Positions 15,644 to 49,796 of a stretch of 64,000 nt of DNA are shown here, piece after piece. The stretch's first letter is position 1. Every line of letters begins with the position of its first letter. The notes below the pieces were generated by a model. The model saw only the letters and a list, made by a program, of their open reading frames with translations, made no database searches and was not told the DNA's origin. A program made the translations under genes and the position numbers. The DNA is from Hawksworthiomyces lignivorus (taxonomy: Eukaryota; Ascomycota; Sordariomycetes; Ophiostomatales; Ophiostomataceae), in the NCBI GenBank assembly GCA_002917075.1, contig NTMA01000001.1:186001-250000 (forward strand). The letters run 5' to 3'.

Positions 15644-17404
15644 ATGGACGAGGAGATAGACAAGATTGCAAAATCTGGCGACATGAAACGATTCACAGCT
15701 TTTCTCTTCCGTAACTTTTATGCTGACTGGCGCGACTACAATGGCCGCACCCTCCTTGCCCGGTTCTCGGCACACGGGACCGTTGATATGGTAAACCTTC
15801 TCTTCTACTTAGATAGGAGTCATCTCAATATGGAAGACGACGACGGCGAAACACCCCTTGTCGTGGCCGCTGTGGCGGGCAACGTAGCCGTCTTTGATTT
15901 CCTTCGCTCCGTCGGCGCAAGCCTTTTTCGACTTCGCGATTATCATCTACCGCTCAGCTGGGGAAAACGCAGAGATTCTCTGATTAAGCTCCTGGAATGT
16001 GCCCATAGTCCAGGCCGCCTGGCTGAGGAAGTCGACAACCGGGAAAAGGACTACGTGAACATGGCCTTTGAGAATGCTCTTCAGCGTGGGGGCATCAATC
16101 TACGATCGCTTGTTGGCTCTCCGGCGCAAGTACGGAGCGACGGGCCGTTGATCTTGCGCAGAATGGCCCACGGACAGCACCCACCAGATTTTGTTAGCAC
16201 CCTCACTCTCTTGCTCTATGCTGGCTCGTGCTCGCAGGTGCTAGATAACATTAATGGCTCCTCCTACACTACTGCGTTTTGCCAAGACCTACCACAGTGG
16301 ATGATATTGGTTGAGCCAGCCGACCATGAGCTGTTCCGCAACCTCGTTTCATCCATTTGGGGAGTTCAGTGCGTGGACGCTTCGCTCTGTAGAAATACGG
16401 TCGGAGCGCACCGCAGGCTGGAGGAGAGCGCTAAAACTATGGCCGCGGCCCTAGTCGCTGCCATGCGGGACCTGCTCGGTCTGGACAGCCCCATAAGCGA
16501 TACCCATAAGCCTGGATATGGCTTGCAGGACCACAGTCCGATGTACACAAAGGAAATGGGACCCATGTCTCAGGCATCCAGCGGGCACATCTTGCTTGAG
16601 CTGATCTGGCCGGGCGTGGATCCTCATCTCTCCCTGTGGGCGTTCCTGATGGCTAGTGCTATTTTCGCCATATTGTTGGTGTACTTAGTTTGTGCGTTGA
16701 GTCTCCTGGTCCGCCGTCTTTCTCATTCTCATATAGTTAGACGCCTTTTGCTGATCCGGCATGTTTTGTTAGGGAAATGGCAAATTGCGCTGCAAGCGTC
16801 TCTGGCCTATGTCATCATGTACTGGCACGATATTTGCACTATAATCCCTTACATCCCCGGCGATGAGAATGCAGCCGATGCGGTCGTCAAAAATCGTTAC
16901 GAACTCTGCGCTGCCCGCGAGGTTGCATGCGACTACCTGTTGGGCCACTTGGCCGGTGCTAACCCCGTAGGTACGCCCATGCAGGAGAATGTGTTGACGA
17001 CAGGCTACGAAGGCGACATGGCCATGTTGAATGTTGACACGACTGGGGCAGCCGTTGACGGTCTCGATCTGGACGCCATAGCGCCGATGCCAAATTATGA
17101 AACGACCGATCTGTCTGCGCAGGAGGACGCAGCCAGGAGAAAGCAGATCAACGCCAGCCTCGGCTACAGCCCTACCGACAAGTTTACAAAGTATCCGGGG
17201 TGCAAAACATGCAGTAAACTATCTTCTAAATCTAACTTCAATCGACACATAAGGGAAGTTCATCTGGGCAAGCGACAAAAGTGCAAGACGTGCGGCGGCT
17301 TATACAAGAGGACCACCAAGGGCCATAAGTGCGAAACGAGAGATCCTCGTGGCAGGCGCCCAGAATTCCATCCGGTGGCAGGGGAGCGTGCTGAGGGTAA
17401 CTAG
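15644..17404 (+). CDS. Ankyrin-repeat / transmembrane / C2H2 zinc-finger protein
   Basis: Single exon, 586 residues. Residues about 33-95 hold two ankyrin-like units (DYNGRTLLARFSAHGTVDMV and GETPLVVAAVAGNVAVFDFL). Residues about 329-356 form a strong transmembrane segment (LWAFLMASAIFAILLVYLVC) flanked by Arg-rich bases (VRRLSHSHIVRR), and 375-403 is a weaker hydrophobic stretch. The tail has a C2H2 finger with ligands Cys520, Cys523, His535 and His540, then a second Cys547/Cys550/His561/Cys563 knuckle, and ends in a basic region (RDPRGRRPEF). The start ATG is the first of the frame. The layout suggests a membrane-tethered zinc-finger protein whose tail could be released, but that is inference. 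No named family recognised. Confidence 0.75.
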   Translation: MDEEIDKIAKSGDMKRFTAFLFRNFYADWRDYNGRTLLARFSAHGTVDMVNLLFYLDRSHLNMEDDDGETPLVVAAVAGNVAVFDFLRSVGASLFRLRDYHLPLSWGKRRDSLIKLLECAHSPGRLAEEVDNREKDYVNMAFENALQRGGINLRSLVGSPAQVRSDGPLILRRMAHGQHPPDFVSTLTLLLYAGSCSQVLDNINGSSYTTAFCQDLPQWMILVEPADHELFRNLVSSIWGVQCVDASLCRNTVGAHRRLEESAKTMAAALVAAMRDLLGLDSPISDTHKPGYGLQDHSPMYTKEMGPMSQASSGHILLELIWPGVDPHLSLWAFLMASAIFAILLVYLVCALSLLVRRLSHSHIVRRLLLIRHVLLGKWQIALQASLAYVIMYWHDICTIIPYIPGDENAADAVVKNRYELCAAREVACDYLLGHLAGANPVGTPMQENVLTTGYEGDMAMLNVDTTGAAVDGLDLDAIAPMPNYETTDLSAQEDAARRKQINASLGYSPTDKFTKYPGCKTCSKLSSKSNFNRHIREVHLGKRQKCKTCGGLYKRTTKGHKCETRDPRGRRPEFHPVAGERAEGN

Positions 17405-21004: not shown

Positions 21005-21771
21005 GAGCAGTAAGATACGAGGCTGGCGTTTATGAGATGATTTTCGGCGCAGCGGGACTTTGCTTTGGGTATGCAAACTGGACTGGCTTATGCGGATAGA
21101 ACTAAGGGGATTAGACTTATATTGTACTGCAATAAATCACGGGAGGCATACTGTTTTGTTTTATTTTGACGTACGAGTTTAGACGGGTGGAAACGACGAC
21201 AGCTTGTCCTAAATACCTTCACATTGCTGCTGCACATGAGACGTGAGAAAACGAAGTCAATGCTGCGACCACAGCTACTTAGCCCCACTGTGCACATTAT
21301 ATGCACATCCTTCAAGCAATCACGCCCCATTATGAAGATGGTGTACGAAAAGCGAAATTAGAATCGTTATTTTTCGAGCTGATTTGTGTGCAAAAATCGG
21401 AGTAGACCTGAATGGTGCGGCTTCGTAAGATAAACTTTGCGCTGTCACAGCTCGAACTGAGCCCCATGCTAACGATACTACTCCGTAGTGGGTGGAATGG
21501 TTGCTTTATGCAAACGAAAGCAATAGCCTTCTTCGTCTCCCCACTTGGAATTGATAATACCGCACTCTCGCCCTGGACAATTGCCAATCATATGTGACCA
21601 TGGCGATGCGGCTGACTTGTATTGATACGGTGGTACCTGGTCTGTAAGGTGCCTAATATTTACCTCCCCAAAAACGTTATATTCTTCGTCTGCATTTACC
21701 ACGAGTTTTAACCACAGTCTGTCTTTGACCTCTCATCTCTTGTTCAAAACCAGCTTCGATGAGCTGAGCGC
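21005..21771. other. Intergenic between MFS and BTB genes
   Basis: 767 bases, no gene seen. Contains one exact copy of TACTCCGTA at 21479..21487. Confidence 0.5.
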
Positions 21772-22650
21772 ATGAAAGGACCAGCCATGGACACTTCCGC
21801 AGCCTACTTGCATTCTCTTATCGGCACACTTTTGATGGTTCCCAAGTTCAGCGACCTCAAGTTCGTGTGTGAAGGTCAAGAGATCGATGTCCACAAGGTC
21901 ATTGTCTGCACCCAATCCCCTGTCATCGACAAGTCGGCCAACAATGAATTCTTTGTCGAAGCGAAGAAAAGCAGAATCGAGATGGACAACTTCGACTTGC
22001 CCACGGTCAAAAGCATGGTCGAGTTCATGTACACTGGCAACTATTCCATCGCTGCTCACGAAACTGGAGATATTGATTCCAAGTTACCGGGTCAAGAGCC
22101 ATTGGAAACACTGCTCCGGCATGTGCGGATCAATGCCATAGCCGACTACTACGACATCCCACGACTTCGGGATATTGCTGCTTCTCAGATCAAGGACATC
22201 TTTGCTAGAAACATCTTCTCTGCGACAGTATTTTCAGAAGTTCTCAAAGAAGTTCGGAAAACGACGGGCGACAAAAAACTTTATGAGATGATGGCTTCTG
22301 TTGCATCAAATCACTTTGAAGAACTGCTTCTTGACAAAAAATTTGAAGATCTCGAGATCACAAAAGACGAATTTGGAGGGCGCCTTCTTGTTGCTTGCGC
22401 ACAGCTCATGCATGCACAGCATGAGCTTCATCTGCAAACAAAGAAAAAGTTGACGTCCCTTGAAGAAATTATCGAATCGAATGCAACGTCAAAACAGAGA
22501 ACCTGCGTACACTGTTCTAGTAGATTTGGCTGTTACTTTGCACCTGGTTCCGGAGAAAATTCAAGCGACTGGCAACTCTACTGTAACAGCTGTGATAAAA
22601 GTCAATCAGCCTTGCCATTGTTCCCTTATGCCGGTTTTGGACGTCGCTAG
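21772..22650 (+). CDS. BTB/POZ-domain protein
   Basis: Single exon, 292 residues. A second in-frame ATG five codons on (21787) has a better context (GCCATGG) and may be the real start, giving 287. Residues about 22-130 show the fungal BTB pattern: FSDLKFVCEGQEIDVHKVIV, then SPVIDKS, IEMDNFD, and VKSMVEFMYTGNY. BTB domains dimerise and often act as Cullin-3 adaptors. The following helical region (DYYDIPRLRDIAASQI) resembles the segment after BTB in fungal homologues. The C-terminus adds a paired-cysteine motif CVHC...CNSC, a possible zinc ribbon. No Kelch or MATH partner. Substrate unknown. Confidence 0.85.
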   Translation: MKGPAMDTSAAYLHSLIGTLLMVPKFSDLKFVCEGQEIDVHKVIVCTQSPVIDKSANNEFFVEAKKSRIEMDNFDLPTVKSMVEFMYTGNYSIAAHETGDIDSKLPGQEPLETLLRHVRINAIADYYDIPRLRDIAASQIKDIFARNIFSATVFSEVLKEVRKTTGDKKLYEMMASVASNHFEELLLDKKFEDLEITKDEFGGRLLVACAQLMHAQHELHLQTKKKLTSLEEIIESNATSKQRTCVHCSSRFGCYFAPGSGENSSDWQLYCNSCDKSQSALPLFPYAGFGRR

Positions 22651-23420: not shown

Positions 23421-24759
23421 ATGCCTCTCTGGGACCGGCTTCAGAGTCTAGGGCTACTGGAGGCGACGTTAAACGCGCCCAAGGTAGCTGAAGAACCCGT
23501 CAAAAAGGTATGATTCCACTAAGATAAGGTGTTGTACAGCGGTCGCGTGAGCTATCCGGCCGGCGATTTTGCTTCCTTCCTATTTTGCCATTGATCTGTA
23601 GAAGTCCTCTTCTGCTGGCTTACTAACCAAAGACTTTAAGCAGGACCCTGCTCAAGCACCAATTCATACGATGAGACGTGATGTGGTGACCTATGACACA
23701 GAGTCAGAATTATCGGACCTAGATGGCGAAGAGGACGAGTACAGCACGGATAGCGACAGCGGATACAACTCCGCGTCGGTCACCAACAAAGCCATGGTCG
23801 GCCGCCGCCGAGTGGGCACAGAGAAACTGACTGGTGACAGTCATGTCCAGCTCTCGCACCAGGGCCAGGCCGAAATGTGCCGCCAGCTATCGCGTGAAAC
23901 TCATGACTATGTGGAGCTGCGGCATTTCTCTTCCGACGACGATGCTGACGACGGATTCCATTTGCTTGGGTTCCATAACGGCGTGCGTGTCTACCACCTG
24001 GAGTCTCCGACTATGGTAAAGCGCCTTTGTACCGCAGTACTTCGAACCGCTGTGGGCCTGAGCTATGTAGACATCAAAGCCATGTGTCCACCTACCGTCA
24101 TGGAAATGAACGAGGACGGGAAGAACGAAGAGGAAGCAAGCAGCGGCGACCAAAAAACCGCTGATAACAACCACCCGTATTGCTCTCCCTACATTTCGCA
24201 TTCGCATCCTCTTCTCCGTCCACTGCCGTCAAAAGAAGTCAACAGCTGCTTTGTCATTCGCCCGTCGCTTCTAGGTGGCTTCGGCTCGTTTGCGCTCCGG
24301 CAGCTCGCGCGCGGCGAACACATCCTGGTCGAGCGTCCGCTTCTCCGCACTACGCTATTCCACTTGTCTGCAGAGCTCGACAAGCTGGCACCCGCGCAGC
24401 GCACAGATTTTTTTGCGCTGCACGGCCACCACCCGGATCCGGGGGCGTCCGAGGCCGAGCGCATCTGGACAGCCAACACATTCGTGGCCGGCGACTGCGA
24501 GGGCGTCTTTGCGCTCGCGTCGCGGTTCAACCACGCCTGCCGCCCCAACAACAACGTCGGCTACCACTACAGCAGGCGCCACGACGTGCTAATCATGACC
24601 GCCATCAAGAAGATCCCCGCCGGTGCTGAGCTGCTCATCTCGTACGGCAAGTCGCCTCATATGCTGTTCCACCGATTTGGCTTCCGCTGTACCTGTGGCG
24701 CCTGTGACGGCTTCACGGAGGAAATGGCCAAGAAGTACTATGAGTTGAACTGGTCATAG
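23421..24759 (+). CDS. SET-domain protein (SMYD/SET5-like)
   Basis: Model join(23421..23507,23644..24759), 400 residues. Exon 1 encodes MPLWDRLQSLGLLEATLNAP; a GTATGA intron of 136 nt ends at a CAG. The first ~190 residues are acidic and low-complexity (SDLDGEEDEYSTDSDSGYN). The SET core spans about 200-370: GGFGSFALRQLARGEHILVE (SET-N), RFNHACRPNNNV (the NHxCxPN core that closes the SAM/lysine site), GAELLISYG, then a post-SET FRCTCGACDG with three cysteines. This matches fungal SET proteins that methylate lysines or serve other roles. No MYND finger is seen. The substrate could be histone or non-histone. Confidence 0.85.
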
Positions 24760-32687: not shown

Positions 32688-34439
32688 ATGAAATTCGAAG
32701 ATCTGCTGTCCGCCCCTGGGGCCAGCAACTTTCCAAAGGAAGTGTTCGGCTACCGGCCACACCTCGTCGCCTTTGCTGCGTCTCTGGTAAGAATGGCCTC
32801 CCCTCCTTTCGTCGCAGCGACCGAGATAGAATTCTAACAACCACCACAGGCATCTGCATGCTATGGATACGATGGAGGCTTTATTGGGGGCACGCTCGCC
32901 CTTCCTTCCTTCCAGAGGGCATTCGGCCTCGACACTGCCTCCGCTTCGGCTCTGGCCGCTCTGCAGTCCAACATTATCACGACGTTCCAGGTAGGCGCAT
33001 TTTTCGGTGCCATTATCGGCTACTCTGTCAGCGCCATTCTGGGCGTCGGTCGTCGGCCTGTCATCATCGGCGCCATGTGCATCTTTCTGGTTGGTAGCTT
33101 GTTCGAGATGTTTCAAAAAACTGGTCTTCTATATGCCGGTCGCGCCCTGACCGGAATGGGTGTTGGCTCGTCCATGGTCGTGATCCCGATCTACGTGGCA
33201 GAGTGCTCGCCCAGCCCTATTCGAGGCCGGCTGGTTGGCATGTTCGAGATATCGGTGCAGATCGGCTTGGTGATCGGCTTCTGGGTCAACTTTGGCGTCG
33301 AGCAAAATCTGTCGCCAGAAACAGACACCCAGTGGCGCGTCCCCGTTGCCCTTCAATTCATTCCTGCTACTCTGTGCCTCTGCGTCATCCCCTTTATGAT
33401 CGAGTCACCTCGATGGCTCCTCAGCAAGGGACGCACGGCAGACGCGAGGAAGGCTTTGTCTTGGGTGCGCCATCTGCCAGAGGACCACGAGTTCATCACC
33501 TCCGAGATCAACGAGGTCCAGGCTATCCTTGAGGTTGAAGACGCTCACAACCACCGCCACTTGTGGCGGGAGCTGTTTTCGGTCGGCGTGCGAAACCGGC
33601 TCTACGTTGCAGTTATCGTCATGTTCCTGCAAAGTTTTACTGGGTACGTATAAACTAAGAAAAATAACCGCATCACTTCTATCTACAAACTCTAAAAGGA
33701 CACAGCGCTAACAGTACTCTTATATAGTATCAACTCGCTCAACTACTTCTCGCCGACCATCTTCAAGCAGCTTGGCTACTCGACCATCGAGGTCTCCCTC
33801 CTGGCAACTGGCGTCTACGGAATCTTCAAGATGGTGAGCAGCGTTGTATTTGCCTTCTTCATCGTCGACAGATTTGGACGTCGCCCAGCCCTTCTCGTCG
33901 GCTGTGTCATCATGGCCATTTGCATGTTCTACATCGGCGCGTATGCCAAGGTTGCCAATCTCAAGGACGGCGGCGGTGCTGGTGCGAAGGCGGCTCTCGC
34001 TATGGTCTACATCTACATCATCACAAACAGCGCCAGCTGGACGCCCATTCCCTGGATCTGGGCTGCCGAGAGCTTTCCCACGCGCGTGCGTGCCCTGGGC
34101 ATGATGTTTCCCACGTGCACGCAGTACCTCGCCCAGTTCATCACCGTCTACAGCTCCCCGTACATGATCAACACGATGGCGTACGGCACGTATCTCTTTT
34201 ACGCGGCCTGGATTGTCGTGGCCTTCTTCTTCGCCTACTTCTTCGTCCCAGAGACCAAGGGAATCGCGCTAGAAGACATGGACCTGCTCTTTGACGTGGA
34301 CGCGCCGACCTATGCGGTCGCTGCTAGAAAGAGATACGAGGAGGCGCACGCCGCTGGCATGACTGCTGCTGCTATGAGACACATTGAAATGACGGACAAG
34401 GCTCAGGTGAATGCCACTGTGGAGGAAGTGGAGGTGTAG
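32688..34439 (+). CDS. MFS sugar porter, quinate/hexose permease-like
   Basis: Model join(32688..32786,32850..33643,33728..34439), 534 residues. Introns are 63 nt (GTAAGA, branch TTCTAAC, acceptor CACAG) and 84 nt (GTACGT to TATATAG), both keeping frame. Family marks of the sugar porters are present in order: GYDGGFIGGTLALPSF in TM1, GVGRRP after TM2, GRALTGMGVGSS, PIYVAECSPSPIRGRLVG, IESPRWLLSKGR in the central loop, then DRFGRRP and PETKG near the C-terminus. Twelve membrane segments fit. The GYDxxFIGxTLAL start is reminiscent of fungal quinate permeases, but specificity cannot be read from sequence. It lies upstream of a DUF1772 protein and an aldehyde dehydrogenase, so aromatic or polyol uptake is plausible. 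CreA-type motifs in the promoter fit sugar repression. Confidence 0.88.
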
Positions 34440-36332: not shown

Positions 36333-37862
36333 TCATACCCGGTACGTGATCGTCTTGGTGCGCACCCACTCGTCCAGGCCGGCGTTGAAGCGGCCGAAGC
36401 CGCTGGACTTGACGCCGCCGTGGGGCAGGGCGGGCTCGTCGTGGACGGTCATGTTGTTGATGTGGACGGCGCCGGACTCGATGGCGCGGGCCATGCGCAG
36501 GCCGCGGCGCAGGTCCTCGGTGAAGACGGCGGCCGACAGGCCGTAGTCGGTGTCGTTGGCGAGGCGCAGGGCCTCCTCCTCGGAGTCGACCACGTACAGG
36601 CTGACGGTGGGGCCGAAGCTCTCGGTGGCGTAGAGGGCCATGTCGGGGGTGATGCCGGCGACGATGAGGGGGCGCAGGCGGGCGGGTTCCGCGGCGAGCC
36701 CCTCGAGCGCGGCGGCGACGGTGGCCGTGGGCGGGACCAGGTGGGCGCCCTTGGCCAGGGCGTCCTCGACGAGGCCGCGGGCCTTGTCGGCGGCGCGTGG
36801 CTGGATGAGCAGCGGGGCGGGGCGGGACTCGGAAGCGTCGCTGGCGCCGAAGAACTTGGCGACGCTGGCGGCGAGCTCGGCCTCGAAGGCGGCGGCCACG
36901 TCGCGGTGCACGATGATGCGCTCGGTGCTCATGCAGATCTGGCCCGCGTTGAGAAAGGCGCCAAGGGCGCACTGGTCGGCGGCCAGCGCGAGGTCGGCGT
37001 CGCGCCAGACGATGGCGGGGGCCTTGCCGCCGAGCTCGAGCAGCGCCGGCTTGAGGTGCTCGCCGGCGAGGCGGCCGATGATGCGGCCGACCACCGTCGA
37101 CCCGGTAAAGTTGACCTTGCGCACGGCCGGGTGCGCGACCAGCGCCTCGGTCACGGCGGCCGCGTCCGCCGGCGCCGCGTATACGACGTTGACGACGCCC
37201 GCCGGCAGGCCTGCCTCGGCAAACACGGAGCCGATGGCCCACAAGGTGCGCGGCGCCAGCTCCGTCGCCTTGAGCACGACCGTGTTGCCCGCCGCCAGCG
37301 GAAACAGCACCGCGCGCGTGCCCAGGATGTACGGCGCGTTCCACGGCGCCAGCGCCAGCACCACGCCGTACGGCTCGCGCAGCACCAGCGCGCCCACGCT
37401 CGGGTCCTGCGTCGGCGGCGCCGCCCCGACGTTGGCCGTCGCCGCCCGCCCCGCCGCGTCCCGCATAAAGTTCGCCGCCTCTCCCACATTGAACTCCGCC
37501 CAGTCCCGCGTCGCCCCCGTCTCCTCCTGCATGTACCCCACCAGCTCGTCCCGCCGCCGCTCCATCACCTCCGCCGCCCGCAGCAGCAGGTCGCGCCGCG
37601 CCCGCGGCGTGCTGGCCCGCCAGCCCGGGAACGCCGCCTGCGCCGCCGCCACCGCCGCCTCCGCGTCCGCTGGCAGCGCGCCGCTGAACTGGTGCACCAC
37701 CTTGCCCGTGGACGGGTTGACGACGTCGAACCGGCGCTCCGAGACGACGTCCTCGCCGTTCACGAGGAATGGGACGGTAAACAAGCTCGGCGGCGAGACG
37801 CCGTTGCTCTTAGGCGCCTCGACGGGGACGACGGGCTCCGCCGTCTTTGTCTCTTCCGCCAT
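36333..37862 (-). CDS. Aldehyde dehydrogenase, vanillin/salicylaldehyde-type
   Basis: Single exon, 509 residues from the ATG at 37862. The open frame continues 62 codons upstream without a better start. The reaction is NAD(P)-dependent oxidation of an aldehyde to the acid. Seen: Asn175 in PWNAP, cofactor Lys198 in VLKAT, FTGSTVVGR at the nucleotide fold, general base Glu276 in LELGGKAPAI, and nucleophile Cys310 in NAGQICMSTERI. The NAGQICMSTER box is shared with salicylaldehyde, benzaldehyde and vanillin dehydrogenases, whereas many other ALDHs have NxGQxC with different flanks. No targeting signal, so cytosolic. Grouped with a quinate/sugar-type permease and a DUF1772 protein. Aromatic aldehyde oxidation is my best guess; the substrate is unproven. 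Confidence 0.9.
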   Translation of the reverse strand: MAEETKTAEPVVPVEAPKSNGVSPPSLFTVPFLVNGEDVVSERRFDVVNPSTGKVVHQFSGALPADAEAAVAAAQAAFPGWRASTPRARRDLLLRAAEVMERRRDELVGYMQEETGATRDWAEFNVGEAANFMRDAAGRAATANVGAAPPTQDPSVGALVLREPYGVVLALAPWNAPYILGTRAVLFPLAAGNTVVLKATELAPRTLWAIGSVFAEAGLPAGVVNVVYAAPADAAAVTEALVAHPAVRKVNFTGSTVVGRIIGRLAGEHLKPALLELGGKAPAIVWRDADLALAADQCALGAFLNAGQICMSTERIIVHRDVAAAFEAELAASVAKFFGASDASESRPAPLLIQPRAADKARGLVEDALAKGAHLVPPTATVAAALEGLAAEPARLRPLIVAGITPDMALYATESFGPTVSLYVVDSEEEALRLANDTDYGLSAAVFTEDLRRGLRMARAIESGAVHINNMTVHDEPALPHGGVKSSGFGRFNAGLDEWVRTKTITYRV

Positions 37863-39836
37863 ATCTGAAGTGCCTTGTTCTTGTAAGTGAACAGAGTTTG
37901 TCTCACTTTGCTCTCTCTGTATCTCTCTGATTTCTGTTTTATTCTCTCCTTTAAGTTTGCTCCTTTCCCCCTTTCTTCTCTTCTTTCTCTTCTTATTCCT
38001 TTCTTCGTCTTGGGAATGAGACAGTTTAAAACGACGTATGCAGGACAAGACGGCACACCCCGTCGGAGAATCCTATAAATCCTCTGCCACCTTTCTGTAT
38101 TTACTCCGTATTTCCATCATGTTGATGACATACTTGCTGGGAGGAACTTGTGGCCGAGGTGAGATACTGAGGGGGGCGGCAGACCCCAGAAGACAAGTCG
38201 ACTAGTGTGCCAACTATTTGCTATCCGAACCCAATGCCGAGTCGAGCCTAGATGCATAAGATCATACGCTAGAATGGTGGGACCTGTTCAAGAGCGAGGA
38301 GTATTCCACGGAAGGACGCGGAGGGAACTAGAGGATTTCAGGATCCGAGAGCCAAAGAAAAGAGACGACACAAGAGCAAAAGCTTCCGGACACTTCGCAC
38401 TGGCAGTGCTCTGAATTCCATGACTGCGAAGGCGCCAGCTGCCAGAAGCAGCCTGCTACTTAATAATTTCTGTCGGAAAGAAACAAAATGGGAGCGGGGA
38501 TCGCATAAACTACGAGGCTTCCTTTCCCTCAGATAATGCTATAGTAACAGCTTGAATCCTGGAGAAAGTGGGTGTGCCCGTTGGTCGCCTGTCGGCTGTA
38601 TCAAAGCGTCGTCATATGCACTTTTTTGCCAGTTTCATCCAAACAGGCCGCCGCGTCGCAAGCCACTACCCCCGTCGAAGAAAAGAGGAGAAAATGAAAA
38701 AGGACACTTGGAACAGAACTAGATGCGACAGTAGCAATTGTCTGACTCGTACAAATGGTGCGCAGTGCTGTGCCCTTAACAGAATTGGGAAAGCCTCGCG
38801 GAAGAACATTAAAAAAATGGCCTCCTCCGCATTCCAAAGGACGTCTGTCTACGTGAAGCAGGTGAGGTAATACTCCAAAAAAAAAAAGAACCTAGCCTAG
38901 ACCTCTTGAGCCATCGGGGACCCTGCTGCAGGCATAGATAGATCCGAGACTAGGGATTCCATTGGAGGATTGCATCCGCTGCATGATTAGCTCGTTTCTC
39001 CCACCTGTTTTGTCCTTATGCCAGTTCACCTTGAGAGGGGATTACAGCTTTAAAGCGGAGGGGCGCTGTTCTGGCCGCCGTTTTCAGTAGGTGTGAACCA
39101 TTATTCTTGGCGTCCTTTACAGCAAAGTTTGTCTCTTAGAAGTGCTTTGTATTTCGTGGCAACTTACAGTATCACCAACAACGCGTCGTGAATATGGCCT
39201 TCCCCCTGTCCTCCCCGCCACCTTCCAAACCTCCCAAAAGCCCGAATCTACACCGCATGGCCATGGTCCTTACACTTCTGAAAGCCTGTAGTTATGTACG
39301 CTTAGAGTGAAGCATGATCCGGCTTTGGATCTACGGGATTATGTGGCCACTACTATCAAAATGATAAGAGTATATGAATGGGTCAAGGGTCGTGGGCATA
39401 CGCACACCACATTAATCTTGTTTGACTTTATAGACTGCGTCAACTTGCTTGAGGGTGTTATAAATCGTCACTCCCATAGCTTTCCTTTTTTTTAGTTTAA
39501 GCAACCTTTGGGGGGAAACCTGTGAAGAATTTTGAAATTTGGAGAATACAACAACTATAACTCTACAGCGTTTGAGTGTATCCCAGCTGCGAGTTATGAG
39601 TTTGGGAACGTACGCTGCGTATGTAGCTCTTTAGTTGTTGGGTAGTTTACGCAGCTGAAACAGTTCATTGCTCGCAATAACAAGGCTCGGCTAACGGCTA
39701 ACGGCTATCATTAAATGCTACACCGTTCAGCCTCTTAACTTTCGTAAGCCTGAAGGTATGCCGAGACGAGTCTTGCTGGAGGTATTTTGTTTCTCGGCCT
39801 GCCAGAAATATATTTCGAGAACAGCATGACAGGTGT
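37863..39836. other. Intergenic, no gene seen
   Basis: 2 kb between the aldehyde dehydrogenase start and the tail of the NLR gene. Pyrimidine-rich leader at 37900-38000; TACTCCGTA at 38102..38110; short tandem CGGCTAA copies near 39690. No protein-like frame beyond small chance ORFs. Confidence 0.5.
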
Positions 39837-40059
39837 TTAGTCCGGAGGCGGCTTAGCGGTTTTGAAAGCATCAATCATTTGAAAGATACGCTCGTGTCGT
39901 TTTGCAGCAGCCTTCAAGAGCGGCGTCCGACCGAAACCTTCATCTCTTGTCTCAATATCTGCGCCTTTGTCGAGCAGCAGCCGTACAATAGCCTTATTGC
40001 CTCTCTCGACAGCACACGATAACGGCGTCCGGCCTGTCCCTTCATCTTTTGCCTCAATG
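39837..40059 (-). pseudogene. Out-of-frame C-terminal ankyrin repeats of the NLR gene
   Basis: Directly beyond the NLR stop, the frame shifted by 2 nt continues as ankyrin sequence: RGADIEAKDEGTGRTPL, then AIVRLLLDKGADIETRDE, a diverged cap repeat (PLLKAAAKRHERIFQMIDAF) and a stop at 39837. The upstream array and this tail join in frame if two bases (AG) missing between 40074 and 40075 are restored, as all other repeats have GTCGAGCAGCAG where this one has GTCGCAGCAG. So about 75 residues, including the capping repeat, are cut off in this allele. Confidence 0.75.
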
Positions 40060-41365
40060 TCAGCGCCTCTGTCGCAGCAGCCGTACAACAGCCTCATAGC
40101 CCCTCTCGGCGGCCCACGATAACGGCGTCCGACCGAAATCTTCATCCTTTGCCTCAATATCTGCGCCTTTGTCGAGCAGCAGCCGTACAACAGCCTCATG
40201 GCCCTTCTCAGCAGCCCACGATAACGGTGTCCTGCCTATCCACCTATCTTTTGCCTCAATGTCAGCGCCTTTGTCGAGCAGCAGCCGTACAATAGCCTCA
40301 TGGCCCTTCTCAGCAGCCCACGATAACGGCGTCTTGCCATTTGTCTCAATGTCAGCGCCTCTGTCGAGCAGCAGCCGTACAATAGCCTCATGGCCATTCT
40401 CAACAGCCCACGATAACGGTGTCTTGCCCATCCGCCCATATTTTGCCTCAATGTCAGCGCCTCTGTCGAGCAGCAGCCGTACAATAGCCTCATGGCCCCC
40501 CCCAGCAGCCCACCATAACGGTGTCTTGCCTATCCGCCCATCTTTTGCCTCAATGTTAGCGCCTCTGTCGAGCAGCAGCCGTACAATAGCCTCATGGCCC
40601 CTCTCGGCGGCCCACAATAACGGCGTCCGACCGAAATCTTTATCCTTTGCCTCAATATCTGCGCCTTTGTCGAGCAGCAGCCGTACAACAGCCTCATGGC
40701 CCTTCTCAGCAGCCCACGATAACGGTGTCTTGCTTGTCCACCTATCTTTCGCCTCAATGTCAGCGCCTCTGTCGAGCAGCAGCCGTACAATAGCCTCATG
40801 GCCCTTCTCAGCAGCCCACCATAACGGTGTCTTGCCCATCCGCCCATCTTTTGCCTCAATGTCAGCGCCTTTGTCGAGCAGCAGCCGTACAACAGCCTCA
40901 TGGCCCTTCTCAGCAGCCCACGATAACGGTGTCCTGCCTATCCACCTATCTTTTGCCTCAATGTCAGCGCCTCTGTCGAGCAGCAGCCGTACAATAGCCT
41001 CATGGCCCTCCCCAGCAGCCCACCATAACGGTGTCTTGCCTATCCGCCCATCTTTTGCCTCAATGTTAGCGCCTCTGTCGAGCAGCAGCCGTACAATAGC
41101 CTCATGGCCCTTCTTAGCAGCCCACGATAACGGCGTCTGGCCTGTTTCCTTATCTTTTGCCTCTATATCAGCGCCACTGTTAAGCAGCAGCTGCCCAACA
41201 GCCTCGTGTCCTTCCATAGCAGCCCATATTAGCGGCACCCCCCCATGGGTCTGATCTCTTGCTTCTATATCGGATTTTCTATCGAGTAGAAGCTGCACAA
41301 GAGCCTTGTGACGTATTTTGGCGGCATTTGACAATAGACTTCGACCGTCTGTATCTCTCATGTTT
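39880..41365 (-). repeat. Tandem ~102-bp ankyrin-coding repeats
   Basis: About fifteen units of 102 bp (34 codons). The inner ones are nearly identical over blocks such as GAGCAGCAGCCGTACAATAG; the first two (near 41130-41365) and the last are diverged. Unit 10 lacks 12 bp (near 40338-40350, only TTTGTC left between the TPL and DIE codons), keeping frame; unit 13 lacks 2 bp. Similar units recur with a spacing of five (units 3-4 versus 8-9, 6-8 versus 11-13), pointing to block duplication of about 0.5 kb. Confidence 0.85.
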
Positions 41366-44243
41366 GGGTCGCACGCAGCACAAAGGAACCAGAGGAGTCC
41401 CTCATCATTTTGCTTTAACACAAATGAGAGTATGCCTCGATCTTTAGAAAAGGCAGCACCTCGGTCTATCTTCATGCATTTATTTGTGTCTGTTGCGAAG
41501 CTGCGATGTAAGTCACGAAGCTGAGGCAAGTTCGGTTGAAGTACCAAGTGCACCTCTACGAATGCCGCAGCAGCACCGTTGTTCCCTGTGGCCAAAGATG
41601 CGAAGAATGGCGTCCCATAACGCTCATCTTCTAGTGAAAAACAGGCGTGTCTCGACGGGTGAATTTTGATGAGAGCTGCGGCGTTGTGCTCCGCCAGCAG
41701 ATACAAAAGGCTTGCCTTGAGCGTGTAACGTCGGGCTTGGTGTAGCTCCCACAGGTTATTGAATTTGATCCAGCTGGTACGGTCAAAGCCCTGCAGAAAG
41801 TTTGTCTGGCTGATACTACCTGTTTCTGCTGCGTCCGCATGATATAGAATATTCTTCGTGGCGTATTTTAAAAAAGGGAACTTCTTACTCGCTGCACGAC
41901 GGAGTTTTTCCGTCGCATTTGATGTTGCTGAGGGAAACAAACTGTGAACGACGAGGGACTTGGCGGCGTCCAAATGCAATTGGCTGAGGCAGCATTGTTT
42001 TAGTCGTTCATGACTTTTACCTTCGAAGTTGCCACCGATGTCCGACCAGATTCTCTCGAAGCCATGGTCCTTGAGAAAAAAGTCTTTGACGGACTCATGA
42101 ATGAACTGAACTGTTGGAGCTGCAGACTTGGTAACTTCGGCAAGGCCTTTGGAAGAATCGAGAATGAATCTCTGAATAGCCGCTGCGTTTATCTCCTCGG
42201 GATCCCACTCATATAGTACCTCGGATTTGTCACCGGAGAGTATGGCGAAGTACAGCTCTTTTGGCTTCAGTGGCCGTCTGGCAAAAAGCACCCACTGAAT
42301 ACATAGTAGTAATTTTCCTCTATTGAGACTATCTCGTGTCAGAATGTTGTGGAAGAGCTCGTGCAGATCTCCAGGGATGTCGCGAAGCTTTTGTCGAAGT
42401 GCATAAATTCGGCCACCGTCATACTCTTTGTTCAAGATCTCTACCACTAGGACAACCCAGACGAAGACGCCAGCTGCCTTTTCTTGGAGCTCGGTGCGGA
42501 TTCGTCCGGTAAGGCTGCTATCTCCAATCTGCAGCTCGCTGTTTATATAGCTGGTGATGTCCTGGGTATGCCCATCCTGTCTTTCGAGAATAAAACTAAG
42601 GCTCTTTGGAATCGTGATGTGGGGATAATGTCTGCTTGCATAGCAAACACGAAATTGAATACCTGCTGACGTAGCCTGCTCGCCTAGGTCTCTAAAGAAC
42701 GACACCATATCACGGATCTCATGTTCGCGGCATTCGTCTAAAGCATCAACGAAGCAAATCAATGACGTTCCTACCAAACTCAGAACGACTTGCTCGAAGC
42801 ACAATTTCAAAGCCTCGACACTCCACTGAACCTCCCATGATGTTAATTCGATGGAGTTGAAGACATCGTGATGTGTTCGACACCGCTTCAGAAGCTGCAG
42901 TAAAAGCGATCGGTACATGCCAATTGTGGACTTCTCTAGCTCAGTGCCTCGCGCATTGAAAAAGAAAGAGAGAATAATTGCATCTTTCATATTTCTGCGC
43001 GTGTTGGCGAGGGAAAATTTCATCAACGTCGACTTTCCGGCACCAGGCTTCCCCTTAATCCACAGGAAGCCGTCGTGGTCGACAAGTTTGCTGGGGTCAA
43101 GCCAGTCGAGATACTCGGATTTTAATAGTAACCATTCGCATGTTTTTGCATGTGCTTTTTTGATGGACAGATGGCGAGCTTCAATCTGGTCAAATTTTAA
43201 TAAATCGAGTAGGGTTTGCTTTTGTTCGTTGCTCAATACTGAGAGCCTTGGGATTTTCGATGGCGGCTCGGCTGCATTGTCATCGTTGGATTCGTCACGC
43301 GGCATCTTAAACCTCTGCATTCGCTCAGCTGTATTTAAGAACAATTAGTACATCCTTTGTGAAATTATTTCTTTACTATAACTTTTTGAGAATACTTACA
43401 GAAAGGTAGAGATGTATAAGACGTAGGCATAGCAGAGCAAGATGCTACGCCTTCGTTGACGTGTACGGAAACGCCAGTCGCCGCTGGAATCGACAAAGGC
43501 GCGAATCTTGTAGTTTTGCCAATTTCTTCAACCAAACGGTCGAATGCTTTTTGCTGCCCTTCACCGTACAGTAATGTCATCTGGACGTCGAAGATACCAA
43601 ATAAAGAGTACACGCGATCTTCTTCGCGTGTGGTCATTCTTTTTTCGGCCCATCTCATCCGCTCTGAAACAGCGAACTCAGAGAGAGGGCTGCCTCGGAG
43701 GGCTTCGAGGGGAATTCTTGTTATGTCATGGATATGCTGTCCCAGAGTTTCTTTATTCCCTAAGAACACTTCCTCTTTAGAAAAGAACTCCACCGACTCT
43801 GGGGCGATCAGTTCTTGCAGCGTCCATCCACGGGTGAACCATCTGCTCTTCCAAAGTTCGGACTCCCAGGCCAGCTCGATGGGTGTGCTACTGGCGCCGG
43901 AAGCGGGTCCCGAGACGTCCTCGAGGTAGGCGTAACAGACCGTCGCATCGCGATACCAGCGAAACATGCAATTGATAGCTTCCTGGAGCTCAACGCTATT
44001 GGTCTTGTCGATGCAGCATGTATCCACCCAAAAGTAGCACAAATTACGGCGCCATGCCTGTTCTCCACAGAAAAGGATCTTTCTGTAGCCAGGTTTATGC
44101 TCCCCTGTGCCGTCTAACAGGTCTTGGAAGGTGACCTCCTCAGGGCCCCATGTATGCGAAAGTATTGCGTACGGTGGAAGTTTGTCGTTGGGAAATTCGT
44201 TTAAGGAGATCTTGCCTGTATTCGAGCGTCTCAAGAGACGCAT
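40060..44243 (-). CDS. HET-NACHT-ankyrin STAND protein (fungal NLR, incompatibility type)
   Basis: Model complement(join(40060..43328,43400..44243)), 1,370 residues. The intron of 71 nt has a perfect GTAAGT donor, a TACTAAT branch and an ACAG acceptor. Exon 1 is a HET domain (residues 1-260): LPPYAILSHTWG, FWVDTCCIDKTNSVELQEAI, SRWFTRGWTLQELIAP and REEDRVYSLFGIF are the hallmark HET boxes. NACHT NTPase: Walker A GKPGAGKST (374-382) and Walker B ICFVDALDEC (472-481). From about residue 935 on lies a tandem array of 34-residue ankyrin repeats (GRTPLSWAAEKGHEAIVRLL type). In known fungal NLRs the repeats sense a ligand, NACHT oligomerises and HET triggers cell death in heterokaryon incompatibility or defence. 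The array ends abruptly at a 2-nt frameshift. Retaining the intron would give a 292-residue HET-only protein. Confidence 0.88.
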
Positions 44244-45225: not shown

Positions 45226-48200
45226 TCACGGAATGCAAAAGTCGATCCAGCTGCCCAGGTAGTCGAGGCGGTTGCTCGACGCCTCTTCCTCCTTGAAGAT
45301 GGCCTCGAACTCTTCGTAGCTGAGCTTGCCCCAGCCGCCGCGGGCCTTGGCCTCGTGCTCGGCCAGGTCCAGGCGCTTCCACTCGACGAGCGTGGCCCGC
45401 GGGATGGACACGGGCGAGCCCGACGTGCTGCTGCCCTTGCGGCCGCCGTCTTTGCTGCCGCCGCGGTGGCCGTCGGCGCGCTGCGGCTGCTTCTCCTTGA
45501 GCTTCTTCTGCTTCTGGGGCTGCCGCGGCTCCTGCTCCTGCTGCTCCTGCTGCGCTGCAGCTTCTGCTGCAGCTTCTGGGGCGCGCAGACCCTCCGTGCC
45601 GTTCGGCGCGGCGGCGGAGGAGCTGCCCTCGGCCGCGGTCTCGCTGCTGCTGGGGCCGGGTAGCGCGCTTCTCGCTCTCTCGGCGTCGTCGGCAAGGCCG
45701 TTCTCGGCGTCCGGGACCGCCGGCGTCGGTGCGCGCGGCGAGATGTTCCCTTCCGAGCTCGTGGCCACCGTGGCCGACGTGGACACGTTGGCGAGGGCGG
45801 CCGCCAGCGCCGGGTTGGCGTGCGGCGGCACAGGGGGCGGCTCAGCTGCTTCTGCGTCTGCGTCTGCTTCTGCGCGCGCGCGGGCCTGGGCTTGAGCCCG
45901 GGCGCGCGCCAGGACGTCGGGGTCCGCGTCCGGGCGGAACTGCGGCAGGGTGGGGTCTCTGTGCTCGGGCTCGTGGTAGCGCTCAAAGACGACCGAGGTC
46001 TGCGAGTCGAGGTCGTCAAAGTCGGACCACTCAAAGACGGTGGGGTCGGAGCGGCGATCTGGGCTGGTCTGGCGCATGCGCGCCTCCACGGTCGCGTTGA
46101 ACTCTTCGAGGCTGACAAATCGGAAGCGGCCCATGTCGCGCCCGGCGCCGCTCTCAGCGCCGGCGCCACTGCCACTGCTGTTTTGGCCGTTTTCGGGCTG
46201 GCTCGCGCCCGCCGCGCCGCTGGCTACATCGCCTGCTGCGTTCTCGCCTGCTCCGTCTGCGCCAGCGCCAGCGCCGGCGCCGGCACCAGTGCTCTCCGGC
46301 TCGCGCGTGCCGATGACCTCGTAGCCGCTGTGGCGCAGCAGCTCCTCGAGCGTCTGCTCGCGGACGGGCTTGTCGGACGAGGCCGGCGGCGGCGGGCGGC
46401 GGGACGAGGACGACTCAAGGGCGTGGCGGGCCAGATCGTCGTCGGTGGCGGCGGCGGCGGCGTCGACGTTGATGGACTCAAAGAGGTGGCGGTAGCGGTC
46501 GCGGGCGGCGCGGGTCTCGGCAGCGGCGACGGCCAGGTTCTCCTTTTCGAGGAACAGAATGTCCAGCAGCTCGTTGAAGGCCTGCTGCATGACCTGGTAG
46601 AGGATCTCGCGGCCGGCGTCGCGCTCGGCGTCGGGGATGTCGAAGCCGCCCCAGCGCTCGGGCACGCTGCGGCGCGACGACGTGGACGGGTTCGACCGCG
46701 TGTCGTAGTCGTCGCCACCGGCGGCCGCCATGTCCTCGGCGAAGCGCACCTTGGACGAGGAGCGCGACCGCTGCGGGCGGCGGCCGCTGGCGCCGCTGGC
46801 GCCGCTGCCTCCCACGAGGTCGTGCGCGAGCACGTCCTCGTCGTCCTGCCAGCCGTCGGGCGCGGCGGCGCCCTCCTCCTCGTCGAGGTAAAAGTGGCGG
46901 CGCATCCAGCGGTTGTGCAGCTTGCGGCGGGCGGCAACCTTGGCCTTCTTTGACATCTGGGCGCGCATAAAGGCCTCCTGCTGGGCGCGCAGCTGGCCGA
47001 TGGTGGGCAGGCGGCGGCTGCTGGTGCGGGCGCGGCCGTTTGGCTGCGATTGTGACTGGGCCTGCGCCTGTGGTGTCTGCTGCTGGCCGTCCAGGGCCGC
47101 CTGCGCCGGCTCGGTCGCCGCGCCGTTCGCGCCGCTGGTGTGTGCCCCGTCCGCATCGGCCTCGGGATGCGCAGATTGCGCGACGGCGGCGCCGTTCGGC
47201 TGGGTCTGGGGCAGCATGTCGTGGTCGATACCAGTGCCCCACAGCGGCACGTCGTCCGGGTCGATGATGCTGCTCTCCTCGTCGTTAGCGACAAAGATGC
47301 CGTCGCTGCTGAACAGGCCGGCCGAGTCGCGCCGCCGCCGCCCCACGAGCAGGGCCGGCAGCTCCTGGACGGTGGCGGGCGGGTCCAGCAGCGCCTCCCA
47401 GTAGTGGGTCTGGGCGCTGCTGCCGTTGCCGGCTTCATCATCTTCGTCGTCGTCCATGCCGTGCGTCAGAACGGCCGTGAACAGGCCGCCGCCGCCGCCA
47501 CCGACGCCGCTGCCGTGGTGGCGGCGGCCGGACTCGGGCCGCGTGAACAGGCGCGACAGGATGTCTTCGCGGGTGGCAGTGTCGGGCTTGTCGTCGGCGA
47601 CGACGGCGACGTCGGCGCCGCCGGCGCCGCTCCCGCTGCCGCTCCCGCTGCCGCCGCCGCCATTCGTCACGGTCACCTCGCCGGTGGCACTGTTGATGGT
47701 CTTGCCGTGGAGCATGCGGTTCAGGTCGGCGCCCGGCACGCGGCCCTCGCGGCCGAACAGGCTGCTGAGGGGCTGGCGGTTGGCGACGAGCTGGTGGGTC
47801 TCGATGCTGCTCATGACCTGGTCGTCGAGGCCCTCGAGGATGTCCTTGTGCATCTGCTTGTAGAGGACGTAGTAGGCGCGGAAGAAGCGCAGAAAGTCGC
47901 GGCGGCTGACCAGGCCGTCGCGGTCGGTGTCGTAGCCGTCAAAGATCTTGCGCAGCTTGTCCTTGCGCTTGCGGTAGGAGAGGCCGTGCAAGAACTCGGA
48001 GAAGCCGATGAGGTCGTCGTTGTTGGTGTCGTAAAAGGCAAACATGCGGTCGTGGATCAGGTTGGGGGCGGCGAGGCGGTAGCCGCCCGAGGGCACGAGG
48101 CAGCGCTCAAAGGTCTTGCGGTCCATGGCCAGGCACAGCTCGTCCGGGTCGTCGCGCCACTCTGTGTTGGCCATGTAGGTCCACTGCTCCCAGAAGGCCT

Positions 48201-48963
48201 CGAGCTCCTGGCGCTCGAAGCCCGTGTCGCGCGACAGCTTGGCGATCAGGGCGCGCGGCAGGCTGCGCAGGCAGGCGTCCGGGTCGCCCGGGTACCAGAC
48301 GGGCTGCATCTGGCGGGGGCCAAAGGGCGGGGCGGGCATGCGGACCTTGTAGAAGATGTGGGTCTTGATGTGCAGGCCCTGGGACTCGCAGGTCTCGCAC
48401 AGGTCAAAGTCGGCGCAGTTGGCGCAGCGGTAGCGGATGCCGCGGATGGGCACGATGCCGCAGGCGTTGCAGGCGCAGCCACGGTGCACGTAGGCGCTGC
48501 GCCGCGCGTTGTCCTCGGACACGCGGAACAGCAGGCTGACAATGTTCTGCCCGGCCCGCTGCACCACGGCCTGCGTCATGTCGTCCAGCCACCGCTCGTC
48601 CACGGTGCCATCGTCGGCTATGGTCTCGGCGCGCCCGGGCTCGCCCTCGCCCTCGCCCGCGCCTGCATCGGCATTCTCGTCGGTTGCCGGCACCGCGGCC
48701 GCGTCGTCGTCGCTGGCGGCCTGCCGGTCGGTGCCGTTGGGCCCGTCGGCGTGCGAGTGGCGTCTCGAGCGCCGCACGGCGTTGCGTCGGTGCAAGCCGC
48801 CACCGCTGTTGGAATGGCCGTCAGAGGCGCTTTGGTGCTCCCGCCGTCGGTGAGCAAAGTACAGACCGGCTCCGATGGAGAGGGTTGCTGCAGTAGCCGT
48901 AATGAGCGCCACGGCAACGCGCGGCCGCAGGAGGCTCGCTGCGCGGGATCCAGACAGGTCCAT
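45226..48963 (-). CDS. ZZ zinc-finger and EF-hand protein with N-terminal membrane anchor
   Basis: Single exon, 1,245 residues, from the ATG at 48963. Residues 16-38 (VAVALITATAATLSIGAGLY) form a membrane segment with Arg-rich bases after it, so the bulk is probably cytosolic or intermembrane. A ZZ finger spans about 163-207 (CNACGIVPIRGIRYRCANC, DLCETC, H...H). Two EF-hands follow: loop 312-323 DTNNDDLIGFSE and loop 345-356 DTDRDGLVSRRD, both with good calcium ligands. The remaining 800 residues are low-complexity (Ala/Gly/Ser/Gln) with helical islands, and the C-terminus returns to order (GWGKLSYEEFEAIF, YLGSWIDFCIP). Strong GC bias makes long shadow frames on the other strand. A calcium-responsive membrane-bound adaptor is a reasonable inference; no named gene. 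Confidence 0.85.
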   Translation of the reverse strand: MDLSGSRAASLLRPRVAVALITATAATLSIGAGLYFAHRRREHQSASDGHSNSGGGLHRRNAVRRSRRHSHADGPNGTDRQAASDDDAAAVPATDENADAGAGEGEGEPGRAETIADDGTVDERWLDDMTQAVVQRAGQNIVSLLFRVSEDNARRSAYVHRGCACNACGIVPIRGIRYRCANCADFDLCETCESQGLHIKTHIFYKVRMPAPPFGPRQMQPVWYPGDPDACLRSLPRALIAKLSRDTGFERQELEAFWEQWTYMANTEWRDDPDELCLAMDRKTFERCLVPSGGYRLAAPNLIHDRMFAFYDTNNDDLIGFSEFLHGLSYRKRKDKLRKIFDGYDTDRDGLVSRRDFLRFFRAYYVLYKQMHKDILEGLDDQVMSSIETHQLVANRQPLSSLFGREGRVPGADLNRMLHGKTINSATGEVTVTNGGGGSGSGSGSGAGGADVAVVADDKPDTATREDILSRLFTRPESGRRHHGSGVGGGGGGLFTAVLTHGMDDDEDDEAGNGSSAQTHYWEALLDPPATVQELPALLVGRRRRDSAGLFSSDGIFVANDEESSIIDPDDVPLWGTGIDHDMLPQTQPNGAAVAQSAHPEADADGAHTSGANGAATEPAQAALDGQQQTPQAQAQSQSQPNGRARTSSRRLPTIGQLRAQQEAFMRAQMSKKAKVAARRKLHNRWMRRHFYLDEEEGAAAPDGWQDDEDVLAHDLVGGSGASGASGRRPQRSRSSSKVRFAEDMAAAGGDDYDTRSNPSTSSRRSVPERWGGFDIPDAERDAGREILYQVMQQAFNELLDILFLEKENLAVAAAETRAARDRYRHLFESINVDAAAAATDDDLARHALESSSSRRPPPPASSDKPVREQTLEELLRHSGYEVIGTREPESTGAGAGAGAGADGAGENAAGDVASGAAGASQPENGQNSSGSGAGAESGAGRDMGRFRFVSLEEFNATVEARMRQTSPDRRSDPTVFEWSDFDDLDSQTSVVFERYHEPEHRDPTLPQFRPDADPDVLARARAQAQARARAEADADAEAAEPPPVPPHANPALAAALANVSTSATVATSSEGNISPRAPTPAVPDAENGLADDAERARSALPGPSSSETAAEGSSSAAAPNGTEGLRAPEAAAEAAAQQEQQEQEPRQPQKQKKLKEKQPQRADGHRGGSKDGGRKGSSTSGSPVSIPRATLVEWKRLDLAEHEAKARGGWGKLSYEEFEAIFKEEEASSNRLDYLGSWIDFCIP

Positions 48964-49796
48964 GGCTGGGCAAGACGGCAGGCCCCCAATCGTCTTGTCG
49001 TTATATTGTCAGCGTCGTGTCGAGTTTCATCGCCGCTGCTGCCAATGTCGAATAAGCAGATAGCAGCGTTATCGAGTTCAGGGGTAACTATTGTGGCGTT
49101 CGATCGAAAAACAAGGAAATGGTTGATGGGTGGGATAAGCAATGCAGTTGTGATGAGGGAATCCTTGTTGCAGAGAGAGAGCTCACAGGATAACGCCCGA
49201 AGCTTCACTCATCAGCTGTGGCACCAGACCAGGCCGAGAAAGGCAATTGCAGTTATGTAATCATGAAGATAAAAGTGGGTCTGAAACCCGGCTGCTCTTT
49301 CTGTCCAGCAGCCGAATTCGTCCGGAGTCGTTGGTCCCCTGAGGCTGTAAATTTTCAGGGTCTAACAGGGGATTACTAGCCGTACATACAGCGTAATCGT
49401 ACTCGTATTACTAGCACACATCAGCGCATCTCACCATTCACACCATCCACACCCCGCTAATACCAAATCAAACCCCTCGTGTGTGCCCTCCAATCTACCA
49501 AAGCCCAAGCCAAGTTAGATAGACACAGACTCACATGCGCCCTATAGTGTACATTTGTACATTACCTGATGACATATTGCCCATAGCGCAGAGTGTGTCA
49601 CGGAGTACTCCGTAGAATGTAAGTCGTATAGCGTTCCTGGTACACACTAAGGGCCACTCGGCGTTTGGTCAATGCCGCTGCGGCGCCACTATTTGAAATC
49701 GACATCCCTCACACTTCACGCTTCCCGCTACAGCTGCATCAGCCCGCACTCTGTAAGCGTACTGACTATGCGCGCTAGAATCTTCCGCCTTGCTAA

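What the first reader, a model, noticed from the sequence alone, without database searches (positions are those of the whole stretch)
40060..44243. HET-NACHT-ankyrin NLR with a near-identical repeat array
The sequence directly shows a HET domain, a NACHT with intact Walker A and B, and thirteen ankyrin units so alike that recent amplification is likely. From established work on fungal HET-STAND genes with WD or other repeats (for example HNWD in Podospora), high repeat identity goes with fast-evolving specificity in allorecognition. A HET-NACHT-ANK version with such recent repeats is a good candidate for an incompatibility or defence locus.
Basis: partly seen in the sequence, partly recalled or inferred. 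Interest (0 to 1): 0.75.

Follow-up and report, generated by a model that had tools for sequence, protein, structure and literature searches.

The report
Fungal self-recognition receptor with clipped sensor
This looks like a fungal immune-type receptor (a cell-death trigger, a molecular switch and a row of look-alike ankyrin sensor units) of a kind already described in fungi; its row of units goes on past the point where the gene now stops, because a small length change near the end shifts the reading frame.

Summary
The gene is real: minus strand 44243-40060, two exons, 71-bp GT-AG intron, 1370 aa: HET domain, NACHT-type NTPase (Pfam NPHP3_N), ankyrin array. 'Thirteen near-identical units' is too strong. 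The ORF holds 12 complete units and part of a 13th; units 1-2 are diverged; nine full core units average 88.5% DNA and 81% protein identity. The given end, 40060, is not the array's end: unit 13 is 100 nt instead of 102, and about two more units continue in another frame to 39837. The shortened array is still predicted to fold (pLDDT 90.6), and relatives end just after helix 2 more often than chance (29 of 74, 15 expected), so a working shortened receptor is plausible; a broken allele or an assembly error is not excluded. Architecture, repeat conservation and variation at binding positions are known for fungal NLRs (PMC4986451). The array is not exceptional in its own genome. Lesser observations: growth by a five-unit block; frame breaks near array 3' ends in 5 of 7 disrupted arrays, the window's included. 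Role in allorecognition untested. New member of a known kind.

The parts
43400..44243 (-). Exon 1: HET domain (effector)
   Evidence: ORF and PF06985 hit at residues 25-110 of 281; 49-58% identical to HET-NACHT-ANK proteins P0097, P0112, P0113, P0117, P0118
43329..43399 (-). 71-bp GT-AG intron (GTAAGT ... TACAG) that joins HET to NACHT in frame
   Evidence: sequence and in-frame joined translation, 1370 aa; no RNA evidence
40063..43328 (-). Exon 2: NACHT-type NTPase, linker and ankyrin array
   Evidence: 1088-aa frame; NPHP3_N 96.6 bits, Ank_2 E=2e-122
43027..43053 (-). Walker A, GKPGAGKST
   Evidence: read; motif name recalled
42733..42762 (-). Walker B-like, LICFVDALDE
   Evidence: read; motif name recalled
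41137..41343 (-). Ankyrin units 1-2, diverged edge units
   Evidence: unit 2 is 69-72% identical in DNA to the full core units
40129..41136 (-). Ankyrin units 3-12, core array; unit 10 lacks 12 nt in frame
   Evidence: nine full units average 88.5% DNA identity
40029..40128 (-). Unit 13, 100 nt instead of 102; frame break near 40074
40060..40062 (-). TGA that ends the ORF because of the frame break
39927..40028 (-). Unit 14, out of frame with the ORF
   Evidence: Ank_4 9.4e-15 for 39840-40079; 42.1 bits against a shuffle maximum of 3.1
39837..39926 (-). Out-of-frame unit 15 / possible former C-terminal cap and its stop
40525..41136 (-). Block of units 3-8, apparently repeated as units 8-13 (40029-40626)
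   Evidence: lag-5 identity 94.1% against 86.5-88.6% at lags 1-4 and 87.8-89.9% at lags 6-8; weaker

Best explanation
A HET-NACHT-ankyrin NLR of what is probably a sordariomycete fungus. Inferred mechanism, by analogy with HET-E/HET-D: the ankyrin solenoid binds a non-self or modified-self ligand through its inner helices and hairpins, the NACHT module switches and oligomerises, and the HET domains are brought together and start cell death. The array turns over by unequal exchange within the locus (a five-unit block copy is visible), which keeps units alike and shuffles variants at ligand-facing positions. In this assembly a 2-nt-shorter unit ends the ORF just after the second helix of unit 13. 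Because that is a natural stopping point of an ankyrin solenoid, the shortened receptor probably still folds, with the last units left silent downstream. Shown here: gene structure, domains, array, frame break, block pattern, predicted fold. Inferred: signalling, ligand and biological role.
For: Domains and splicing; five of 120 listed homologs (of 3125 found) carry the HET motif in front of the same NACHT-ANK body and align along the HET exon; low synonymous divergence between units (pS 0.059 in seven units, 0.148 in all nine); lag-5 block, order-shuffle P=0.0001 for lag 5 chosen after seeing it, 0.0016 for the best of lags 1-6; in a DNA search of the own genome that scored its seven best candidates, matches outside this locus cover at most 82 of the 102 bases at 76-89%; 6 of 7 positions that are randomised in DARPins (list recalled) vary against 6 of 27 others, Fisher P=0.004; array model from one sequence, pLDDT 90.6, both helices of truncated unit 13 formed; best solved fold match a DARPin, 6mol_A, TM 0.86; of 74 homologs that end within about a unit of their last ankyrin hit, 29 end at unit positions 20-26 where 15.2 are expected (P=0.0002, interval chosen after the fact; the window ends at 22).
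Against: Diversifying selection is not established: pN/pS is 0.70 over all nine core units, 1.44 only in seven; at the a-priori positions 0.93 in all nine, while the seven have no synonymous difference there; no codon model was fitted. The lag-5 signal weakens to P=0.069 when units 1-12 are taken and the gap in unit 10 is left unaligned. My first count of homolog ends (47 of 120) is weak by itself, since 28% of random cuts in the last 160 residues fit that pattern, and several listed homologs are named partial. Out-of-frame unit 14 has changes at positions invariant in the nine core units (W5C, A7V, H11N, E12K, A27T, K28R), as expected if it has been silent for a while, but also if it is just an edge unit. 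Nothing here shows expression or function.
Confidence: 0.65

Rival explanations
1. A non-functional allele: the frame break in unit 13 inactivates the receptor, as in frame-broken and non-reactive alleles seen in Podospora HNWD genes.
For: About two units and a cap-like end are lost from the ORF. [quoted passage not shown] Unit 14 shows changes at otherwise invariant positions.
Against: HET, NACHT and 12 full units are open without a stop; the truncated end folds in the model and lies where homologs end more often than chance.
Confidence: 0.25
2. The frame break is a sequencing or assembly error in a repeat array, and the real gene runs through to 39837.
For: Such arrays are hard to assemble from short reads (passages of PMC12222747); the other frame stays open for 80 codons to a cap-like end; 191-contig assembly of unknown read type.
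Against: In the arrays examined, frame breaks and stops are not spread evenly but leave one or two units in 5 of 7 cases (1.2 expected, P=0.002), and in 4 of 6 without the window's own case (1.1 expected, P=0.009); frame switches alone 3 of 4, P=0.015. This is post hoc and from few events.
Confidence: 0.25
3. The units are alike because structure constrains them, not because of recent turnover.
For: The consensus ankyrin residues recur in homologs.
Against: Synonymous sites are also alike (pS 0.059 in seven units), and DNA identity (88.5%) exceeds protein identity (81%).
Confidence: 0.04
4. A splice event in the array bypasses the frame break, as the mini-exons reported for truffle NACHT-ANK genes might suggest.
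For: Mini-exons are reported in Tuber NACHT-ANK genes (passage of PMC9815663). Six frame-changing GTR/YAG pairs of 45-200 nt span the break, five with GTRNG; I did not check that any leads into the open frame.
Against: No GTRNGT donor lies in the array or tail.
Confidence: 0.05

Closest known systems
Fungal NLRs with highly conserved ANK repeats (Dyrka et al. 2014, PMC4986451: outline, abstract, passages and section 12 seen)
   Same: NACHT plus ANK arrays with high internal conservation, variation on the inner helix and hairpin; combinatorial N-terminal domains
   Different: The two Podospora ANK genes in their repeat-number table carry PNP_UDP, this one HET; strain data on repeat number exist there, none here
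HET-E / HET-D / HNWD of Podospora anserina (PMC12222747, passages seen)
   Same: HET-NACHT-repeat layout with concerted evolution of repeats; frame-broken repeats occur
   Different: WD40 instead of ankyrin; ligand HET-C and incompatibility known there; some repeats shared between paralogs there, while no comparable match outside the locus was found here
HET-NACHT-ANK proteins P0097, P0112, P0113, P0117, P0118
   Same: Same domain order; 49-58% identity to exon 1
   Different: Array units differ, many of a 'TGKVDVDSKD' type, and number differs
DARPins (6mol_A)
   Same: Fold of the array, TM 0.86; variable positions coincide with randomised positions (list recalled)
   Different: Engineered; here natural, with one extra residue in the hairpin (33-aa DARPin unit recalled)

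Membership tests
Fungal STAND NLR (HET-NACHT-ANK) | N-terminal HET domain | tested here: met
   PF06985 45.8 bits over cut-off 22.5, profile 1-89 of 146; alignment along the exon with five homologs
Fungal STAND NLR (HET-NACHT-ANK) | Central NACHT-type NTPase | tested here: met
   NPHP3_N 96.6 bits; PF05729 itself below cut-off; Walker motifs read from the sequence
Fungal STAND NLR (HET-NACHT-ANK) | C-terminal ANK repeats | tested here: met
High internal conservation (HiC) NLR | Units over 85% alike over at least 100 aa (criterion in PMC4986451, run there with T-reks) | tested here: inconclusive
   Mean pairwise protein identity of the nine full core units 81%; to their consensus 82-94%; best run of four units 87%. 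T-reks itself was not run
High internal conservation (HiC) NLR | Positive diversifying selection at ligand-facing positions | tested here: inconclusive
   Positions enriched for amino-acid variation (P=0.004), pN/pS mixed
High internal conservation (HiC) NLR | Repeat-number polymorphism between strains | not testable with these tools
   No second strain found; the 120 listed homologs are at most 64% identical
Heterokaryon incompatibility gene | Allelic or non-allelic incompatibility in crosses or fusions | not testable with these tools
   needs strains
Heterokaryon incompatibility gene | Complete open reading frame | tested here: inconclusive
   Open to 40060, but the array continues out of frame

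The most novel reading that the evidence does not exclude
In this genome the C-termini of ankyrin NLRs are repeatedly set by frame breaks or stops in the last units, which are tolerated because an end just after helix 2 caps the solenoid. The out-of-frame units left downstream are a silent store that unequal exchange could draw back into frame, so array length and end unit can change quickly. Surveys that discard frame-broken NLRs would miss this.
Probability: 0.12. Interest if true: 0.55.

Novelty: new member of a known kind. Interest (0 to 1): 0.3.

Why it matters
It adds one more HET-NACHT-ANK receptor from a fungus that is not closely represented in the protein collection (best listed hits 64% for the NLR, and 70% for the neighbouring aldehyde dehydrogenase). 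It also gives a concrete caution: the apparent gene end lies inside the repeat array. If the 3'-end pattern holds in other genomes, gene catalogues that remove NLRs with frameshifts or premature stops (stated in passages of PMC12258605) could lose functional shortened receptors.

Tried and rejected
Considered a unique or unusually recent array: rejected, since by chained units 23 of 68 homologs have at least its mean identity and 11 of 68 at least its best run of four (120 homologs examined, 52 without four chained units dropped). In the same genome L037 exceeds it on both identity measures, and L034, L030 and L041 on one. Considered recent exchange with paralogs: the search found matches outside the locus over at most 82 bases, at 76-89%, but it scores only the best candidates. 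Considered RIP: the array's indices are 0.74 and 1.77, the window's 0.75 and 1.26, no RIP signature by my reading (thresholds recalled). Solved structures: no useful sequence match for HET (one hit, E=0.14) or the NACHT part (none up to E=1). A phrase search for 'HET-NACHT-ANK' found 0 papers, which reflects wording, as homologs with that layout are listed. My first frame-break scan missed the window's own break, so I loosened it. C163 looked by eye like another terminal break, but its downstream score is -0.3 and 29 of 300 shuffles reach it, so it is not counted. Stops at the end of the last unit in L030 and L048 were taken as natural ends and left out of the count. The C9 event was counted with n=8 units, my reading of two overlapping loci; without it 5 of 6, P=0.0003. 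C9 and C108 breaks lie early in their arrays and go against the pattern. The count of homolog ends (47 of 120; 37 by a stricter pattern) was replaced by the phase count, because 28% of random cuts fit the loose pattern.

Full report
What is there. The gene lies on the minus strand. Exon 1 (44243-43400) encodes a HET domain. A 71-bp GT-AG intron (43329-43399) with a consensus donor joins it in frame to exon 2, and the joined frame gives 1370 aa ending at TGA 40060-40062. Pfam finds HET (45.8 bits), NPHP3_N (96.6 bits; the NACHT model itself is sub-threshold at 17.1) and ankyrin repeats (Ank_2 E=2e-122). Pfam matches only positions 1-89 of the 146-position HET profile, but in an alignment with five HET-NACHT-ANK homologs the exon keeps invariant residues from 1 to 280, with 49-58% identity.

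The array. TRF reports 12.8 copies of a 102-bp unit at 39940-41226. By codon the ORF has 12 complete units and part of a 13th; unit 1 is 35 aa, unit 10 is 30 aa, the others 34. Unit 2 is diverged. Nine full core units average 88.5% DNA identity (78-99%) and 81% protein identity. Synonymous differences are few (pS 0.059 among seven units, 0.148 among all nine), so turnover rather than structural constraint alone explains the likeness. Units five apart are the most alike: 94.1% at lag 5, 86.5-88.6% at lags 1-4, and 88.2%, 89.9% and 87.8% at lags 6-8. So units 3-8 look duplicated as 8-13 (order-shuffle P 0.0001 for lag 5, 0.0016 for the best of lags 1-6). With units 1-12 and the gap in unit 10 ignored the same signal gives P=0.069. 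Of the 14 other array stretches with at least eight units tested (one of them partly a duplicate), one, L038 at C133:13 kb, also has its best lag at 5 (P=0.002).

Where the units vary. Twelve of 34 codon positions vary in amino acid among the nine core units; six have three or more residues (4, 8, 9, 30, 31, 32), which in the model lie in the first helix of the unit or in the loop between units. Seven positions randomised in DARPins (list and alignment recalled) hold 6 variable positions, against 6 of 27 elsewhere (P=0.004). pN/pS over all nine units is 0.70, over seven units 1.44; at the DARPin positions it is 0.93 over nine, and over seven there are replacement but no synonymous differences. 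This agrees with the pattern that Dyrka et al. report for a Podospora ANK NLR (PMC4986451, passages), but it is not a formal test of selection.

The frame break. Unit 13 is 100 nt, two fewer than its sisters, with the gap best placed near 40074. The ORF therefore ends 'YEAVVRLLRQRR' at 40060. The other frame stays open for 80 codons to a stop at 39837 and scores as ankyrin (Ank_4 9.4e-15; 42.1 bits against at most 3.1 in 300 shuffles). No GTRNGT donor lies in the array or tail; six weaker frame-changing pairs span the break. AlphaFold2 on the array as it stands, from a single sequence, gives mean pLDDT 90.6 and pTM 0.82, with both helices of truncated unit 13 formed; the best solved match is a DARPin, 6mol_A, TM 0.86. 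Of 120 listed homologs 115 have an ankyrin hit and 74 end within about one unit of the last; 29 of these 74 end at unit positions 20-26 (15.2 expected, P=0.0002) and 34 at 20-29 (21.8 expected, P=0.002), intervals chosen after seeing the window's end at 22. So the break ends the protein where relatives end more often than chance, though most end elsewhere.

Is that a pattern? I scanned 39 array stretches from the genome, of which two rows repeat others, with an ankyrin model built here (434 unit hits, overlaps included). Seven arrays had a frame switch or internal stop. In five (the window, C133:74 kb, C165, C166, C128) one or two ankyrin units follow the break; in two (C108, C9) it is early. 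Under even placement 1.2 of seven would be terminal, P=0.002; frame switches alone 3 of 4, P=0.015; without the window's own case 4 of 6, 1.1 expected, P=0.009. For each of the five terminal cases the downstream ankyrin score exceeds all 300 shuffles. The test was thought of after seeing the window's case; the events are few; the places were chosen by match strength, and 9 of 19 further places asked for were not fetched. A simple reading is that breaks near the 3' end are tolerated and those further in are lost.

Context. G000 is a 43.7-Mb, 191-contig genome. A HET search scored 150 of 351 candidates, all over the cut-off; the window's own HET is not among them, so the number is a lower bound. 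The NACHT-ANK exon gave 88 matches, its own included, with 42 of 303 candidates scored. Eight other HET motifs lie in the 20 paralog regions fetched. Best listed protein hits for the NLR are 62-64% identical, from Leptodophora, Rhypophila and Thozetella among others, and for the neighbouring aldehyde dehydrogenase 68-70%, the named ones from Sporothrix, so I place the genome in the Sordariomycetes (inference); the species was not identified. The same NACHT-ANK body is found behind other N-termini in P0002 and P0007 (sesB-like and HeLo-like by my reading), as expected from the domain swapping in PMC4986451 section 12.

How it probably works. By analogy with HET-E and HET-D: ligand binding by the repeat domain, NACHT switching, HET-driven cell death. 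The HET domain as a cell-death inducer is stated in passages of PMC9815663. None of these steps was tested here. Allorecognition in particular is one of several possible roles.

Verdict. A new member of a known kind. The array is among the more homogeneous in its genome but not alone. Papers: PMC4986451 outline, abstract, passages and section 12; PMC12222747, PMC9815663 and PMC12258605 passages only; others only in search listings.

Noticed in passing
G000 arrays at C133:74 kb (L036), C165 (L040), C166 (L046), C128 (L047): ORF ends by frame switch or stop with a further ankyrin unit downstream, as in the window's gene.
   Followed up: partly
L041 (C147:251500-259000), L034 (C126:36500-44500), L037 (C46:240500-247000): Ankyrin arrays in the same genome as homogeneous as the window's or more on at least one measure (best five units 94%, 87%, 90% against 89%; mean 71%, 87%, 83% against 80%); TRF match 95%, 95% and 89% at the same places (L026, L015, L017).
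   Followed up: partly
L044 (C170:190500-198500) and L045 (C163:1-8000): Arrays whose best self-match is at two-unit and three-unit lag (P<0.001 and P=0.026), hinting at other block sizes.
   Followed up: no
L049 (C108:136500-139700) and L058 (C9:73900-76000): Arrays with a stop (C108) or a frame switch (C9) early in the array; candidate pseudogenes.
   Followed up: no
window 15614-17404 (+): 596-codon frame (stop to stop, no start codon required) with a weak ankyrin match (Ank_2 28.0 bits, cut-off 27.3).
   Followed up: no
window 36333-38072 (-) and 45226-49008 (-): Neighbours of the NLR: aldehyde dehydrogenase and an EF-hand/ZZ zinc-finger protein, in DNA that is mostly more GC-rich (0.66 at 36-38 kb, 0.71 at 46-48 kb).
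   Followed up: no
window 23602-24759, 21763-22650, 32838-34439 (+), 1232-2758 (-): SET-domain, BTB-domain, sugar-transporter and amidase frames.
   Followed up: no
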